IMG/VR virus record: IMGVR_UViG_3300035187_002824 | Location: 1 to 64,000 of that record | Reading direction: 5' to 3' (one strand) | DNA: 64,000 bases | Origin: a virus | Part shown: in pieces, positions 36,962 through 60,939 of the stretch | Layout: every line of letters starts with the position of its first letter | How positions within the stretch are numbered: the stretch's first letter is position 1 | Translations under genes and position numbers: made by a program | The notes under the pieces: generated by a model | The model's input: only the letters and a program-made list of their open reading frames with translations | Databases searched by the model: none | What the model was told of the DNA's origin: nothing

Positions 36962-37569
36962 TATGTTTTATTTTTGACGTAGTGTTCGATCCTGTTAATA
37001 AACTTGGACTCCTGTGCTACTGATACTTCTTTTGTTGAGTACCCTTCCTCTTGCTTCTTTATCAGCTTATCAAGGTCTTCGGCAATATCAAGCATCGTTT
37101 GTGAGTATGCTCTTTTCTTTGCCCAGTCAAGTTCTCCGGAAGCATTCTTAAACATGTTGTCATCCGGTCTTTCATCAATGATTGACTCAAGATTGCTGAC
37201 GATTTTATTCAATGCTACCTTGGCTCTTACCCTTGCAAGTGTGTTAAAAGAACGCATTCGAGATATAGCCTCGTTGATTATAGTAGGGAATCTCTTGTTC
37301 ATGTATTCATTCTTTAGCTTATCGCTGAATGAATAATGCATATTGTCTTCAATATGTTCTATAGATATCCTTACCCTCTCCTCGTCGACATCAACTCCAT
37401 TCATTAATAAAGGTGATGAAGAGCATGCGTACAAGTAAACAAAGATTAGCTCATACGCTTTGAGTTGCTTGAACTCAGGATATGATGAAAGCTCTGGATA
37501 CTCAGATAAGAGTGCATACCCGGTTGACGGGAAGAACACCCTCATTCTTTCAATCTCTTCTTTAGTCAT
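36961..37569 (-). CDS. helical hypothetical protein between TerL and portal
   Basis: A 202-residue, almost entirely helical and charged protein. It overlaps TerL by 8 nt and the portal by one base. The position between terminase and portal might suit a packaging accessory, but no family is recognised. Confidence 0.6.
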   Translation of the reverse strand: MTKEEIERMRVFFPSTGYALLSEYPELSSYPEFKQLKAYELIFVYLYACSSSPLLMNGVDVDEERVRISIEHIEDNMHYSFSDKLKNEYMNKRFPTIINEAISRMRSFNTLARVRAKVALNKIVSNLESIIDERPDDNMFKNASGELDWAKKRAYSQTMLDIAEDLDKLIKKQEEGYSTKEVSVAQESKFINRIEHYVKNKT

Positions 37570-39898
37570 ACATCTTCACCTTTACTTGTTGTCTGTAAAG
37601 AGTTCCATCAGGATTCCTCTTTAGCACATGTCGGTACCTTACATTGGTCTCAGAGGTTTTAACTTCCTCGATATTAACCGGCTCTCTACCTACGCTTAAA
37701 GCGCAAATATACGAATAAACTACTGCAAACAAAACGTCATCAGGGTAGTTGCGCTTATCCACTGATCCCCAGGTTTCATTCCCCTTGTCGGTCATTGATA
37801 CTACGAATGTCCTCAACTGGTCCCATATATCTCTTATGTAGATTCTGTCACCATATGTTACAAGTAGTTCATGCAGGTAGTTGATTATTATTCTGTTACG
37901 GCCTCTGTGGTTGTCTATACCTTTGTTCATCCCTCCTCCTTGTAAGGATTCGATAAGCTCTGTATTGTAAAGCACGCTGTGTTTATCCCCCTTCAATTCA
38001 ACGTAGTCCATGTAGTTTTGACCTACGTTACCCTCTACAAGTTCTCTTATTCGCTTCTTGTTCGGGGTGGTGTTGTAGTATAATCCGGCCAAGTAAACCT
38101 GTAGGTATGTATTCTTATGGTTCGATTCCCGGTAATTAACGATACATGCTACTGTCTTGTATAAGTGATCCCATATTGATGTTGCCATTTTTGACACACC
38201 ATTATCAGAAGACACAGGGTCAGTTCCTTGGTAGAACCGGTGATCATACTTACGGTTGTTCTGTATAAACATCACAGCACTTGCGCGAGGATCTCCTACT
38301 TCTGTGGGGATAAACTCAGCGCCTATTATATCGTATGGAGTATCGCTGTTTTCACCGCACGGTTTTGAGTAGTCATATATTGGCTCGAAGTATCCATGCC
38401 TTGGCCTTTGATTATGAGGCATGTCATTGATCTTCTTGATGTTTTTGTTTATGTATGTTGACGGAACAATGGTCTTGTGTGATGATAGGAACATGTCCTC
38501 TATACAATCAGGATATGCCTGACGGAATTGAACCATTCGCTCTTCAGCTTCAGGACCGTCTATGGTATAAGCTTTCTTCTCAGATTCATAAAACTCCTTC
38601 GTTATTCCCGGGCGTGTTGTCCAGTCAAAGAACAATGGTATGATACCATAAGAGAAGTCTCTTTCTTTCCACTTCTTAATGGTGTTCATGTACTCAATCT
38701 CATAAGCTTTCCCGGCCCGGTCCATCTCTCCTCCGGTACCCCAGATGATTATTTGTCTCTGCATTTCGAGAGCACCTGTAACGGTGTTCTTTCTGTACAT
38801 TGTCGGACGGGCCTCCTTAATCATCTTACCTAACATGGAGATGTATCCGGCCTCGTCTATAAGGACAAGTTGCGGAGATCCACCATTGATGGCTCCTACT
38901 GATGGAGGTACGATAAGGAGTTCCGAGTTTAATCCGTCGATCTTACCTTTCTCTGTCTTTGATTTGAATGATATCTTGTTGTCTGTATCGTTATAAACCT
39001 TTGGCCTCATCCATACCGGCAACTCGGAGAATGGGTATTTCACCTTATGGGAGAAGATCTCCTGTACTTTTGCCTCGTCCTGGGCTATGAACTTTATGAA
39101 GAAGTTTTGATTGAATATAAGCTTCTTGAGTGATAGTGCACCAATGGTTGTGGTAGCAGCAATCTGCCTTGGCTTACCCATCTCAAAGCTGTATCCACAA
39201 TCGAATAGGAATGCTATTACTTTGTGTACTGGAGCAGAACGATACTGCATGTATCCATCATCAAGGTCACCTTCTTTAACGTGGATGTACCTGTCAAGGA
39301 AATAGTATGAGTTCTCGTCGCACCGGAACAGCTCTGAATCAATGTAGCTTTCCATGTCTGGCTCGGTGGTACAGTCAGATATTGACCGATCTTCCGATAG
39401 CCATATCTCAGCCTGCTTACAATACAGCTCGAATGGTTTGTATCTAACCATGGATTGAAAGCCTTCGTTAATGCTATCGATCCATGCTACAAATTCTTTG
39501 TCGTGATTTATTCTGTCTTTCGGGAACCAGTCTGCTTTCCTGATTTCCTTACCACCTCCATGGATTGTTTTGTTTACAAGATCCTGTATTACATCATCAT
39601 TAGCAACGACTTCAACAAGAGATCTTCCGGAGTTTATTCCATTGCCTTCAATGATGGAAATGAATTCGTCCGCTATTTTTGATTCCTCGGTAACAGCAAC
39701 TACCGATTCATCAATCTTAATTTCTTTTTCTTTTACAGGCTCTTCAGAACGGCTAAAGCCGTACTGTTCAAGTACGGCTTGCTGTTCTGCGCTTATCGGC
39801 AATCCTTGTTCTTTCAGGAACTGAATAAACTCGGCATGCCTTTCTGCTGCTTTTTGTTTATTGTTCAGCGCTTGCTTCTGTGTTTTCTGCATTTGCAC
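37562..39898 (-). CDS. terL: terminase large subunit
   Basis: 778 residues. The ATPase part has a Walker A-like KPRQIAATTTIG (about residue 240) and Walker B QLVLIDEAG (about residue 345), followed by IIIWGTGGE (coupling motif). The nuclease part has GTDP (first metal-binding Asp, about 545) and a late DDVLFAVVYSYICAL. The first ~100 residues are an extra charged helical extension. It would cut and pump phage DNA into the capsid. Confidence 0.9.
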   Translation of the reverse strand: MQMQKTQKQALNNKQKAAERHAEFIQFLKEQGLPISAEQQAVLEQYGFSRSEEPVKEKEIKIDESVVAVTEESKIADEFISIIEGNGINSGRSLVEVVANDDVIQDLVNKTIHGGGKEIRKADWFPKDRINHDKEFVAWIDSINEGFQSMVRYKPFELYCKQAEIWLSEDRSISDCTTEPDMESYIDSELFRCDENSYYFLDRYIHVKEGDLDDGYMQYRSAPVHKVIAFLFDCGYSFEMGKPRQIAATTTIGALSLKKLIFNQNFFIKFIAQDEAKVQEIFSHKVKYPFSELPVWMRPKVYNDTDNKISFKSKTEKGKIDGLNSELLIVPPSVGAINGGSPQLVLIDEAGYISMLGKMIKEARPTMYRKNTVTGALEMQRQIIIWGTGGEMDRAGKAYEIEYMNTIKKWKERDFSYGIIPLFFDWTTRPGITKEFYESEKKAYTIDGPEAEERMVQFRQAYPDCIEDMFLSSHKTIVPSTYINKNIKKINDMPHNQRPRHGYFEPIYDYSKPCGENSDTPYDIIGAEFIPTEVGDPRASAVMFIQNNRKYDHRFYQGTDPVSSDNGVSKMATSIWDHLYKTVACIVNYRESNHKNTYLQVYLAGLYYNTTPNKKRIRELVEGNVGQNYMDYVELKGDKHSVLYNTELIESLQGGGMNKGIDNHRGRNRIIINYLHELLVTYGDRIYIRDIWDQLRTFVVSMTDKGNETWGSVDKRNYPDDVLFAVVYSYICALSVGREPVNIEEVKTSETNVRYRHVLKRNPDGTLYRQQVKVKMYD

Positions 39899-40835
39899 TT
39901 TCAGTGTTTGATGCTTCAGTATCAGGAGCGTTCACCGGTCCTGGTTCACCAACTGGTAATTCAGATTCCGGTTCATCGCTGGTTGAATCTTCTTCAACGT
40001 CGATAATGACAGGAGGCTCTGGTGTTTCGTCTGTTTTTGGTTCTCCTCCCATAAGTGGGCCAAGGAGCTCCCCTCCTGATTCACTCAGCTTCTCTTCGAA
40101 TTCATCAAAAGAATCCTTCTCTTTATTGAAGTCAAATGAATTACCAAGGTCTTTTACCCAGTCTTTAACTGAGTCGATTTCAGATTGGATCGAATCAAAG
40201 TCGATATCCAAAGGCTTGGCATCCGTTCCGAGGATAATCTTCTTACCAAACGTCTCGTAGGTAAGTTTCGAGATCTCAGCAAGAACGCGGTTGGTAACCT
40301 GTTCTGTGACCGTAGCATGGATGCTTGCGGTTATTTTACCGGTGGCAGATGTGAGGTCTTTGTACTCTTGCTTTACTGCACCTCCTGATTCACCAAAAGC
40401 AGAGAAAGAAACTTCCTCGTAAATCTTCTGGATCTTCATAACCGGTGTTTCAAAAAGGTCATTGATCTCTTTTGAGATGGATGTGTAATGCGCTGAAAGT
40501 TTTGCGCGGCCAATGAGAAGCTCATTTCGAATGGCTTCGATTTGTGATAAGAAATTGATTGCTTGCATATAGTTGATTTTAAACCACTTATCTAAAGGAC
40601 ACTGCGATTGTAGGGACCGGCATTTGGCAGCAAGAGGGCAGCCACATTCAGAGCATTTGTATTCGCTCATACCTGTGTCTTCGAGTTTCCTTGTTATTGA
40701 ATTGAATATGAATTTAGGTAAAAGCTTTGGCTTATCGCATTCACTGCAGATCTTAGCTCTTTCAATAGCTACTGCGTCTACCTGTTTATTGGGTATCGCA
40801 TTGTTTTTCCAGCCTTCTATAATTTCTTTTACCAT
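39858..40835 (-). CDS. zinc-ribbon protein upstream of TerL
   Basis: 325 residues. The N-terminal 85 contain CSECDKPK...YKCSECGCPLAAKCRS...CP, a paired-Cys zinc ribbon seen in many phage proteins next to terminases. A helical middle and a very acidic Pro/Glu/Ser tail (about 235-325) follow. It overlaps TerL by 41 nt. It may be a small-terminase-like DNA recogniser, but this is not shown. The leader contains the tmRNA coding piece. Confidence 0.65.
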   Translation of the reverse strand: MVKEIIEGWKNNAIPNKQVDAVAIERAKICSECDKPKLLPKFIFNSITRKLEDTGMSEYKCSECGCPLAAKCRSLQSQCPLDKWFKINYMQAINFLSQIEAIRNELLIGRAKLSAHYTSISKEINDLFETPVMKIQKIYEEVSFSAFGESGGAVKQEYKDLTSATGKITASIHATVTEQVTNRVLAEISKLTYETFGKKIILGTDAKPLDIDFDSIQSEIDSVKDWVKDLGNSFDFNKEKDSFDEFEEKLSESGGELLGPLMGGEPKTDETPEPPVIIDVEEDSTSDEPESELPVGEPGPVNAPDTEASNTESANAENTEASAEQ

Positions 40836-40847
40836 ACTTCCTTCCCG

Positions 40848-41004
40848 TTAGGGGTAAGCCCCTACTATGCCGGGGCCTACAAATTTGGGCCGATCAAGCT
40901 GCGATGCGGGTAGCACGCGTAGCGATCATGTTGACAGTGTTGTCAGTTATTTTTCAATACACTCTCCTATGCTCTTTCATCAAATGTCAAATCCAGTCGG
41001 CCCC
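40848..41004 (-). ncRNA. ssrA: permuted tmRNA, coding piece (5' end plus tag)
   Basis: On the minus strand the RNA begins GGGGCCGACTGGATTTGACA, the hallmark tmRNA 5' end with its D-loop-like region. Nucleotides 61-111 follow an A-rich stretch (AAAAATAACT), as at the E. coli resume site, and encode DNTVNMIATRATRIAA then TGA. A TAGGGG/CCCCTA hairpin ends the piece just before the zinc-ribbon gene. Nt 1-7 pair perfectly with the acceptor piece at 41059, including a G3-U70 wobble, the alanine identity element. The piece lies downstream of the acceptor piece, so the gene is circularly permuted. Confidence 0.82.
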
Positions 41005-41058
41005 AATGTTAAATTTTTAACAACCGATTTGTGTGCGCATATGCGTAACCGGTTTTAT

Positions 41059-41121
41059 TGGTGGAGCCGGAGGGGATCGAACCCTCGTCCAAAAGATTTC
41101 CAAACACAATCAACGAACGTA
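41059..41121 (-). ncRNA. ssrA: permuted tmRNA, acceptor piece (T-arm and CCA end)
   Basis: Minus strand: GGAC, T-arm GAGGG-TTCGATC-CCCTC, acceptor strand CGGCTCC, then ACCA ending at 41059. The GGACG directly before the T-arm is a tmRNA signature not seen in tRNAs. The preceding UCUUUU (41096-41091) can pair with GAAAGA of the coding piece to form the base of helix 2. The 5' end is set by a promoter box at 41128. A 54-nt intervening stretch separates it from the coding piece. Confidence 0.82.
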
Positions 41122-41127
41122 TCTGTG

Positions 41128-41135
41128 CAAATGTA
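41128..41135 (-). promoter_or_regulatory. -7 element for the tmRNA / terminase transcript
   Basis: TACATTTG on the minus strand, ~7 nt before the predicted acceptor-piece start. A TTTG lies upstream but at 23 nt spacing, slightly long for the family. Transcription from here would read tmRNA, zinc-ribbon gene and terL as one unit. Confidence 0.5.
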
Positions 41136-41147
41136 CGTTATGTTTTG

Positions 41148-41155
41148 TACTTTTG
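41148..41155 (+). promoter_or_regulatory. -7 element for the small gene at 41177
   Basis: TACTTTTG, 21 nt before the ATG, back to back with the minus-strand box at 41128. The -33 region is poor. Confidence 0.45.
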
Positions 41156-41176
41156 TTTCAAATTAAATTCGATTTT

Positions 41177-56156: not shown

Positions 56157-56244
56157 GGTCAGGTGGCGTAATTGGTGAAAGCAACGTGGGCTTGGTGAAA
56201 ATCCAACACGTCTGATGCAGGTTCGAATCCTGCCCTGACCACCA
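56157..56244 (+). ncRNA. tRNA-like RNA A (remodelled anticodon arm)
   Basis: Acceptor GGTCAGG/CCTGACC with encoded ACCA, Leu-like D-arm, and T-arm GCAGG-TTCGAAT-CCTGC are intact. The anticodon arm is abnormal: ACGTG/CACGT plus a 5' GGC bulge, then TTGG/CCAA around TGAAAAT. The 18-nt apical part replaces the 7-nt loop, and no U33-anticodon pattern fits cleanly. It could be an intron-bearing tRNA or a tRNA mimic. Confidence 0.7.
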
Positions 56245-56252
56245 ATTTAATT

Positions 56253-56358
56253 GATGAGTTCGTCTAATGGTAGGACTGATCTATGATAGATCCTGATGCT
56301 GAGTTAGTCGGCACTGAAAGTTGAAACACTTATACGGGTTCGATTCCCGTACTCATCA
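56253..56358 (+). ncRNA. tRNA-like RNA B (expanded variable region)
   Basis: Acceptor GATGAGT/ACTCATC, a Gln/Glu-like D-arm and T-arm ACGGG-TTCGATT-CCCGT are all perfect. In place of the anticodon arm there is GATCT-ATGAT-AGATC (5-nt loop), then 41 nt including a GCTGA/TCGGC hairpin. Total 106 nt against ~75 in a normal tRNA. Confidence 0.7.
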
Positions 56359-60586: not shown

Positions 60587-60729
60587 CGGGGAGTGGCGGA
60601 ATGGTAGACGCTACGTGTGCACACGTATAAAGGTATCGCGTAAACTTGTTTGTTGATGTAACAGTCACGATAACCAATGCAAGGAGCAGAAGCGAGAGGA
60701 ATATACAGGTTCGAATCCTGTCTCCCTGA
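60587..60729 (+). ncRNA. tRNA-like RNA C (78-nt insert)
   Basis: Acceptor CGGGGAG/CTCCCTG, Leu-like D-arm GCGGAATGGTAGACGC and T-arm ACAGG-TTCGAAT-CCTGT are intact. The anticodon arm is ACGTG-TGCA-CACGT (4-nt loop), with the same stem sequence as RNA A. Then 78 nt follow, including GGTATCG against CGATAACC. Length 143 nt. Confidence 0.7.
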
Positions 60730-60740
60730 CAAAACAAAAA

Positions 60741-60917
60741 CGCGGGATGGCGGAATGGTAACGCACTACAATTAGCAATGACCTCACGAGCGTATGACAA
60801 TTGCAGAGAGGTAGCTGTTGTTTAGAATAATGTACATGTTCAAAGACAACGTAGGTTCTCAGTACAGTTGGGCCCGGTCAGTCCATGAGAATACAGGTTC
60901 GAGTCCTGTTCCCGCGA
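60741..60917 (+). ncRNA. tRNA-like RNA D (about 110-nt insert)
   Basis: Acceptor CGCGGGA/TCCCGCG, D-arm GCGGAATGGTAACGC and T-arm ACAGG-TTCGAGT-CCTGT are intact. Between D- and T-arms lie 128 nt with their own helices: CTACAATT against AATTGCAG, GTTGT/ACAAC, and TTCTC/GAGAA just before the T-arm. No ordinary anticodon loop fits. Confidence 0.68.
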
Positions 60918-60939
60918 CAAATAAAAAAAAGTAAAGCTT

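What the first reader, a model, noticed from the sequence alone, without database searches (positions are those of the whole stretch)
40848..41121. A circularly permuted, two-piece tmRNA encoded by the phage
On the minus strand the T-arm/CCA end of a tmRNA (41121-41059) precedes its own 5' end (41004-40848) by 54 nt. The 5' piece starts GGGGCCGACTGGATTTGACA. The acceptor stem made by joining the two pieces pairs in all seven positions, with a G3-U70 wobble (alanine identity), and the T-arm and GGACG signature are intact. A tag frame follows an A-rich resume site and ends in a stop. Permuted tmRNAs are known in alphaproteobacteria, cyanobacteria and some betaproteobacteria. I know of none in a Bacteroidetes phage.
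Basis: partly seen in the sequence, partly recalled or inferred. Interest (0 to 1): 0.95.

Follow-up and report, generated by a model that had tools for sequence, protein, structure and literature searches.

The report
Two-piece tmRNA gene in Bacteroidota phage
A bacterial virus carries a real, rearranged gene for a ribosome-rescue RNA whose two halves are encoded in swapped order and must pair up after transcription, while the bacteria it most likely infects normally encode the same RNA in one piece; the gene type is known, but this group of carriers seems not to have been described.

Summary
ARAGORN and Rfam's permuted-tmRNA model both call a permuted tmRNA at 41121-40848 (minus strand). The record has no standard tmRNA gene. 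The Rfam score (67.2 bits) is not decisive alone, because the same model gives up to about 65 bits in genomes sampled from Proteobacteria. Comparative evidence decides it. Six of 19 related phage records, most with a near-50%-identical terminase, carry the same gene, four upstream of the terminase. Across 72 phage loci, 71 acceptor stems pair fully (23% when halves are swapped between loci). In 60 distinct loci the connector helix is also coevolved. The G3-U70 wobble is invariant.
The phage looks Bacteroidota-infecting: a TTTG/TAnnTTTG promoter lies just before the RNA, and the primase is BT4734-like. Permuted tmRNAs also occur in Maribacter phage Panino, Chryseobacterium phage MA9V-3, several Crassvirales and a Sunxiuqinia prophage, whose host also has a standard tmRNA. 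In a sample of that phylum, 40 of 41 genomes have the standard form.
So it is real but not unique. Phage-borne permuted tmRNAs are published, and Bacteroidota examples sit in databases, annotated only as SsrA. The phage/host mismatch in gene form, and a possible separate origin of permutation, are the new points.

The parts
41128..41162 (-). Bacteroidota-type promoter TTTG-N23-TACATTTG; the -7 element ends at 41128, six bases before the acceptor piece begins at 41121
   Evidence: 10 such sites in the window, 2.9 expected; another sits 4 nt before tRNA-Met (42993-42964). TAnnTTTG or a close variant lies at the same place in the related loci; 19 of 60 loci against 2.1 in shuffles
41059..41121 (-). 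Acceptor piece (63 nt): 3' strand of connector helix P2, T-arm, acceptor 3' strand, discriminator A, encoded CCA
41070..41086 (-). T-arm GAGGG-TTCGATC-CCCTC, preceded by GGAC
41063..41069 (-). Acceptor stem 3' strand CGGCTCC, including U70
   Evidence: pairs 7/7 with 41004-40998; 71 of 72 phage loci fully paired
41005..41058 (-). Intervening sequence removed in the predicted mature RNA (54 nt; from about 15 to 180 nt in the related phages)
40848..41004 (-). Coding piece: acceptor 5' strand GGGGCCG, D-region ACTGGATTTGAC, P2 5' strand, resume site, tag frame, post-tag hairpin. The 3' end is not determined
   Evidence: 3' boundary inferred
40939..40951 (-). Resume site AATAACTGACAAC (UAACU then GAC)
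   Evidence: many related phage loci have AACTGGCAA or a close variant here
40894..40944 (-). Tag reading frame DNTVNMIATRATRIAA, stop TGA
   Evidence: lineage tags (read by hand) end AA, AVA or MAV
40854..40880 (-). Post-tag hairpin GTAGGCCCC/GGGGCTTAC; the region is not more stable than shuffles
   Evidence: z = -0.34
39858..40835 (-). Downstream ORF (325 aa, unknown function) with GGAAGG upstream of its ATG; probably co-transcribed
   Evidence: no terminator found in between
37562..39898 (-). Large terminase subunit, the syntenic anchor: the tmRNA lies just upstream on the same strand in G033, G039 and G045, further upstream in G004

Best explanation
This is a functional circularly permuted (two-piece) tmRNA gene (ssrA) of a podovirus-like phage that most likely infects Bacteroidota. 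One precursor is transcribed from the promoter at 41162-41128, starting at or within a few bases of the acceptor piece (position inferred). Host tRNA-processing enzymes remove the 54-nt spacer: 3'-end maturation gives the CCA end at 41059, and RNase P cuts before G41004 (inferred from other two-piece tmRNAs). The pieces are held together by the 7-bp acceptor stem and the P2 connector helix (supported by covariation across phages). Host AlaRS should charge it through G3-U70, and host SmpB should load it on stalled ribosomes, since the phage record encodes no SmpB. The ribosome should then resume at the GAC codon and add Ala + DNTVNMIATRATRIAA. The phage thus brings its own ribosome-rescue RNA, with a tag unlike the host's (about GENNYALAA), to keep ribosomes cycling during infection and perhaps to direct tagged proteins to a different fate.
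For: Two independent finders and a perfect acceptor stem with G3-U70. Eight permuted genes in the structural scan, none in 8.8 Mb of shuffles. Six of the 19 records with a related terminase carry it: 5 of the 16 portal relatives and one of the 3 helicase relatives. At terminase identities of 43-52% it has kept structure, promoter, tag and often position. Acceptor stem fully paired in 71 of 72, against 0.23 with swapped partners. P2 duplex energy -9.28 own, against -5.41 permuted, 0 of 5000. The promoter places the start at the acceptor piece. BT4734-like primase. A known-host case: the Sunxiuqinia indica prophage has a permuted tmRNA beside phage anti-repressor, RecT and integrase genes, and the same genome has a standard tmRNA with tag GENNYALAA.
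Against: No transcript, charging or tagging data. The window's own P2 pairing is only modestly better than with swapped partners (rank 20 of 60). No pseudoknots were demonstrated and the 3' end of the coding piece is unknown. Host assignment is indirect for this phage. The RF04321 score alone is close to the 47-65 bits seen in other genomes for probable standard tmRNAs.
Confidence: 0.9

Rival explanations
1. The 3' tRNA-like end is a copy of a host tmRNA kept as an attachment site, or a leftover of imprecise excision; the 5'-like sequence is coincidental.
For: tmRNA 3' ends are common integration sites; the authors of the Maribacter phage Panino paper suggested this for its tmRNA (PMC11590407).
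Against: No integrase family hit and no standard tmRNA in the record. The downstream half has the matching acceptor strand, D-region, resume site and tag, and the two halves covary across phages. A permuted phage gene cannot simply restore a standard host gene.
Confidence: 0.04
2. A decoy or inhibitor: the phage tmRNA competes for host SmpB, AlaRS or ribosomes, or gives a tag that protects rather than degrades, so that it blocks host trans-translation.
For: Tags differ strongly from host tags, and many end AVA or MAV rather than ALAA. [quoted passage not shown] coli (PMC11915505).
Against: A conserved, stop-terminated tag frame and resume site argue for a translated tag rather than a pure decoy; the window tag ends IAA, like a degradation tag.
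Confidence: 0.25
3. A degenerate, non-functional remnant in this particular phage.
For: The window's P2 pairing is weaker than that of many relatives and no terminator is present.
Against: Intact acceptor stem, T-arm, CCA, resume site, tag, stop and promoter.
Confidence: 0.05

Closest known systems
Permuted (two-piece) tmRNA of alphaproteobacteria, some betaproteobacteria and cyanobacteria (Rfam RF04321)
   Same: Gene order acceptor piece - spacer - coding piece; tRNA-like domain shared between pieces; G3-U70; tag frame; RF04321 match over the full model
   Different: Unlike the 27 proteobacterial, alpha-type sequences parsed (D-region mostly GGATCGAC, T-loop mostly GGCGGTA, tags mostly ANDN...), the phage has GGATTTGAC, a TTCGATC loop and a tag starting DNTV. 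Cyanobacterial and betaproteobacterial sequences were not compared directly
Two-piece tmRNA of Methylophilales phage Melnitz and other marine phages (PMC9004378)
   Same: Phage-borne permuted tmRNA
   Different: Melnitz's is described as closest to alphaproteobacterial SAR11 and has a predicted glutamine riboswitch; ours has a Bacteroidota-type promoter, and no riboswitch family reached its threshold
tmRNAs of Maribacter phage Panino, Chryseobacterium phage MA9V-3 and Crassvirales cr10_1, cr125_1, cr273_1
   Same: ARAGORN calls all five permuted, with tags beginning GN or GK; RF04321 passes its cut-off in three of them, Panino, MA9V-3 and cr10_1
   Different: Other phage lineages; annotated only as SsrA, permutation not mentioned in the Panino and MA9V-3 papers
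Standard tmRNA of Bacteroidota hosts and of Cellulophaga phages phi38:1 and Calle_1
   Same: Shared tRNA-like elements such as GGTTTTGACA and GTTTGGAC in some of them (nearest Bacteroidota sequence 82% identical to the window in the compared part)
   Different: One-piece gene order, about 350-400 nt; host tags such as GENNYALAA

Membership tests
Permuted (two-piece) tmRNA | 3' tRNA-like half precedes the 5' half on the same strand, separated by a short spacer | tested here: met
Permuted (two-piece) tmRNA | The halves form a 7-bp acceptor stem with G3-U70, and a T-arm | tested here: met
   7/7 pairs; 71 of 72 related loci; G3-U70 in 72 of 72
Permuted (two-piece) tmRNA | A connector helix P2 joins the two pieces | tested here: met
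   met for the group: coevolution over 60 loci, 0 of 5000 permutations; the window alone is only weakly supported (rank 20 of 60)
Permuted (two-piece) tmRNA | Resume site and tag frame ending in a hydrophobic/Ala-rich tail and stop | tested here: met
   DNTVNMIATRATRIAA*; related tags
Permuted (two-piece) tmRNA | Score over the curated threshold of RF04321 | tested here: met
   67.2 against 47 bits; the model is not fully specific
Permuted (two-piece) tmRNA | Pseudoknots in the coding piece | tested here: inconclusive
   post-tag region not more stable than shuffles; pseudoknots were not modelled
Permuted (two-piece) tmRNA | Processed to two RNAs, charged with alanine, active with SmpB | not testable with these tools
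   needs RNA and biochemistry; no SmpB encoded in the record
Alphaproteobacterial permuted tmRNA clade | Alpha-type tRNA-like sequence (AUAGGAUCGAC, T-loop GGCGGUA, ANDN tag) | tested here: not met
   72 of 72 phage sequences are nearer to Bacteroidota standard than to alpha permuted sequences
tmRNA fragment used as attachment site | Intact standard tmRNA and integrase in the element or host | tested here: not met
   none in the phage record; the host genome is not known

The most novel reading that the evidence does not exclude
Phages of Bacteroidota carry their own lineage of permuted tmRNA that arose by a separate permutation event (beyond the alpha-, beta- and cyanobacterial ones), possibly from a Bacteroidota-type standard tmRNA, and it is kept across unrelated phage groups because the two-piece form with its own tag escapes or overrides host control of trans-translation.
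Probability: 0.3. Interest if true: 0.8.

Novelty: new member of a known kind. Interest (0 to 1): 0.57.

Why it matters
Phages here use a different gene architecture of a near-universal RNA from the one their hosts use, together with their own tags. That makes it directly testable why phages carry tmRNA: ribosome rescue during infection, redirected proteolysis, or escape from host or defence factors that act on the host tmRNA. Because similar genes occur in cultured phages (Maribacter phage Panino, Chryseobacterium phage MA9V-3) and in a prophage of Sunxiuqinia indica, the question can be answered at the bench. It also bears on how often tmRNA genes have been permuted, and on the assumption that phage tmRNAs are attachment-site copies of host genes.

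Tried and rejected
Direct DNA and protein searches of the phage collection with the window locus, portal and neighbouring ORF found nothing; a single-sequence terminase scan of viral contigs found nothing, so the helicase and portal were used. Rfam score as sole proof: rejected after seeing 47-65-bit matches in Proteobacteria genomes. Consensus folding of the whole joined alignment gave little beyond acceptor and T-stem, so the connector was tested by partner swapping. Seven of the eight loci from the genome contigs pattern scan are not called permuted: six are standard tmRNAs matching the pattern by chance and one has no tmRNA call. ARAGORN picked implausible tags for L003 and a few others; those tags were read by hand or left out. 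A sigma-70-type promoter scan found nothing useful, as expected for Bacteroidota. The hosts of the large marine group with GEQVEMAMAA-type tags were not determined. The terminase tree lacks G042 and G045, whose sequences were split between fetched pieces.

Full report
The observation. The window is part of a 68.7-kb IMG/VR virus record. On the minus strand the sequence reads: promoter-like TTTG-N23-TACATTTG (41162-41128), an acceptor piece ending in CCA (41121-41059), a 54-nt spacer, then GGGGCCGACTGGATTTGACA from 41004, a resume-like AATAACT, a 16-codon frame DNTVNMIATRATRIAA with TGA stop (40944-40894), and a hairpin before the next ORF. ARAGORN calls it permuted; RF04321 covers it fully at 67.2 bits; the standard model sees the 3' end and nothing else of weight in the record.

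How much the score is worth. RF04321 is built from alpha-, beta- and cyanobacterial permuted genes and models only the tRNA domain (PMC11915505). In 120 genomes from the phylum of one Proteobacteria genome, a group of matches scores 47-65 bits, clearly below the main group of permuted genes at 113-163 bits. I did not read those loci, but I take most to be 3' ends of standard tmRNAs. In Bacteroidota, the sub-threshold matches that I read are standard genes. I therefore relied on structure and comparison rather than on the score. A scan requiring a 5-bp T-stem, a fully pairing acceptor strand and a D-region motif gave eight permuted genes in the window and related records, and none in 8.8 Mb of shuffled sequence.

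Relatives. The portal found 16 related contigs and the helicase found more. All 19 records chosen from these encode the terminase, most at 41-57% identity and one at 33%. Of the 19, six have the permuted tmRNA: five among the 16 portal relatives (G030, G033, G037, G039, G045) and one, G004, among the three helicase relatives. A short contig, L003 (G001), found by DNA pattern, has another. In G033, G039 and G045 it sits just upstream of the terminase on the same strand, as in the window, and in G004 further upstream. Several records without it end close to the terminase gene, so their lack says little; others (G002, G031, G034, G035, G036, G038, G040, G006) gave no hit. In the terminase tree carriers and non-carriers are mixed, so the gene is gained or lost at times.

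Wider distribution. Three viral-contig scans with a gene-order pattern gave 144 matches; ARAGORN of these records permuted and none standard. Among named phages, ARAGORN calls permuted tmRNAs in Maribacter phage Panino, Chryseobacterium phage MA9V-3 and Crassvirales cr10_1, cr125_1 and cr273_1. RF04321 at its cut-off confirms three of these (Panino, MA9V-3, cr10_1). Cellulophaga phages phi38:1 and Calle_1 have the standard form.

Two pieces that pair. In 72 phage loci the acceptor stem is fully paired in 71, with several pair types at positions 4-7 and an invariant G3-U70; swapping partners between loci leaves 23% fully paired. Selection of loci used pairing of at least six of seven, so the absolute fraction is inflated, but for the pattern-found loci positions 4-7 were not part of the search pattern and nearly all match. 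The connector helix was not used in any selection: over 60 distinct loci its duplex energy is -9.28 kcal/mol for true partners against -5.41 for permuted ones, none of 5000 permutations reaching it. For the window alone the connector is only modestly better than average.

Host. The promoter type TTTG/TAnnTTTG is characteristic of Bacteroidota (established knowledge). It occurs 10 times in the window against 2.9 expected, including right before the tmRNA and right before tRNA-Met. Over 60 loci TAnnTTTG lies at the expected distance in 19, against 2.1 in shuffles. Others have a tRNA directly upstream and are probably co-transcribed with it (sequence). The primase carries a BT4734-like domain. 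A direct link comes from Sunxiuqinia indica, a Bacteroidota isolate, where a permuted tmRNA with tag GKTIQMFDYEAKVAA lies in a region with integrase, anti-repressor and RecT genes, while the same genome has a standard tmRNA with tag GENNYALAA. In the 41 genomes sampled from its phylum, 40 have a standard tmRNA over the cut-off. RF04321 exceeds its cut-off in 2 of 395: the Sunxiuqinia prophage and a second genome where the gene lies near a phage-like DNA polymerase and DnaB-type helicase.

Mechanism. Shown by sequence: gene order, stems, tag frame, promoter position, conservation, coevolution of the pieces. Inferred: transcription start, cleavage by host RNase P and 3' processing, CCA repair in relatives that do not encode CCA, alanylation through G3-U70, use of host SmpB (none in the phage record), tagging. 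What benefit the phage gets is open: rescue of ribosomes during infection is the plainest reading; redirected proteolysis or interference with host trans-translation are possible, given tags unlike the host's.

Known or new. Phage permuted tmRNAs are known: PMC9004378 counted 53 two-piece among 133 distinct phage tmRNAs, mostly aquatic. Bacteroidota-phage cases are in databases as plain SsrA. The Panino and MA9V-3 papers mention a tmRNA without noting permutation, and the Panino paper proposes an attachment-site role. I found no open paper describing permuted tmRNA in Bacteroidota phages; subscription journals are not covered. Compared with alpha-type permuted genes the phage sequences differ in D-region, T-loop and tag, and all 72 are nearer to Bacteroidota standard forms. 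This comparison is partly biased, because the pattern scans required TTTGA and TTCGA; the lineage members found with RF04321 instead share the TTTGA feature. Cyanobacterial and betaproteobacterial genes were not compared, so a separate origin is a possibility, not a result.

Noticed in passing
window 56157-56241 (+), 56253-56358 (+), 60587-60730 (+), 60741-60918 (+): Four tRNA-like genes with intact acceptor stem and T-arm but an anticodon region enlarged by about 10-90 nt; Rfam's tRNA model accepts the first two, ARAGORN calls all four only when introns are allowed, Rfam finds nothing at the last two. Decoys, odd introns or degenerate tRNAs.
   Followed up: partly
window 42993-42964 (-) and tRNA-Met 42959-42887 (-): A perfect Bacteroidota-type promoter ends four bases before the tRNA-Met gene, so the tRNA is probably transcribed from near its own mature 5' end.
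   Followed up: partly
L327 2288-2456 and 929-1057; L324 149-275 and 1128-1306: Crassvirales cr125_1 and cr10_1 carry RAGATH-9 RNAs and Hatchet ribozymes near their tmRNA genes; in cr125_1 the RAGATH-9 ends where the ARAGORN-called tmRNA starts, which suggests ribozyme-made ends.
   Followed up: no
L178, L212, L221 and most of L227-L288 (viral contigs): A large set of viral contigs with permuted tmRNA, mostly short spacers and GEQVEMAMAA-type tags; the compared part of the tRNA-like domain is up to 93% identical to the window's, host unknown.
   Followed up: partly
L324 2768-2833: In cr10_1 a tRNA match overlaps the 3' end of the annotated tmRNA, so the annotated tmRNA end is probably too long.
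   Followed up: no
G075 (genome in the sampled Bacteroidota set): The only one of 41 sampled genomes of the phylum without a standard tmRNA over the cut-off; could be an intron form or an incomplete assembly.
   Followed up: no
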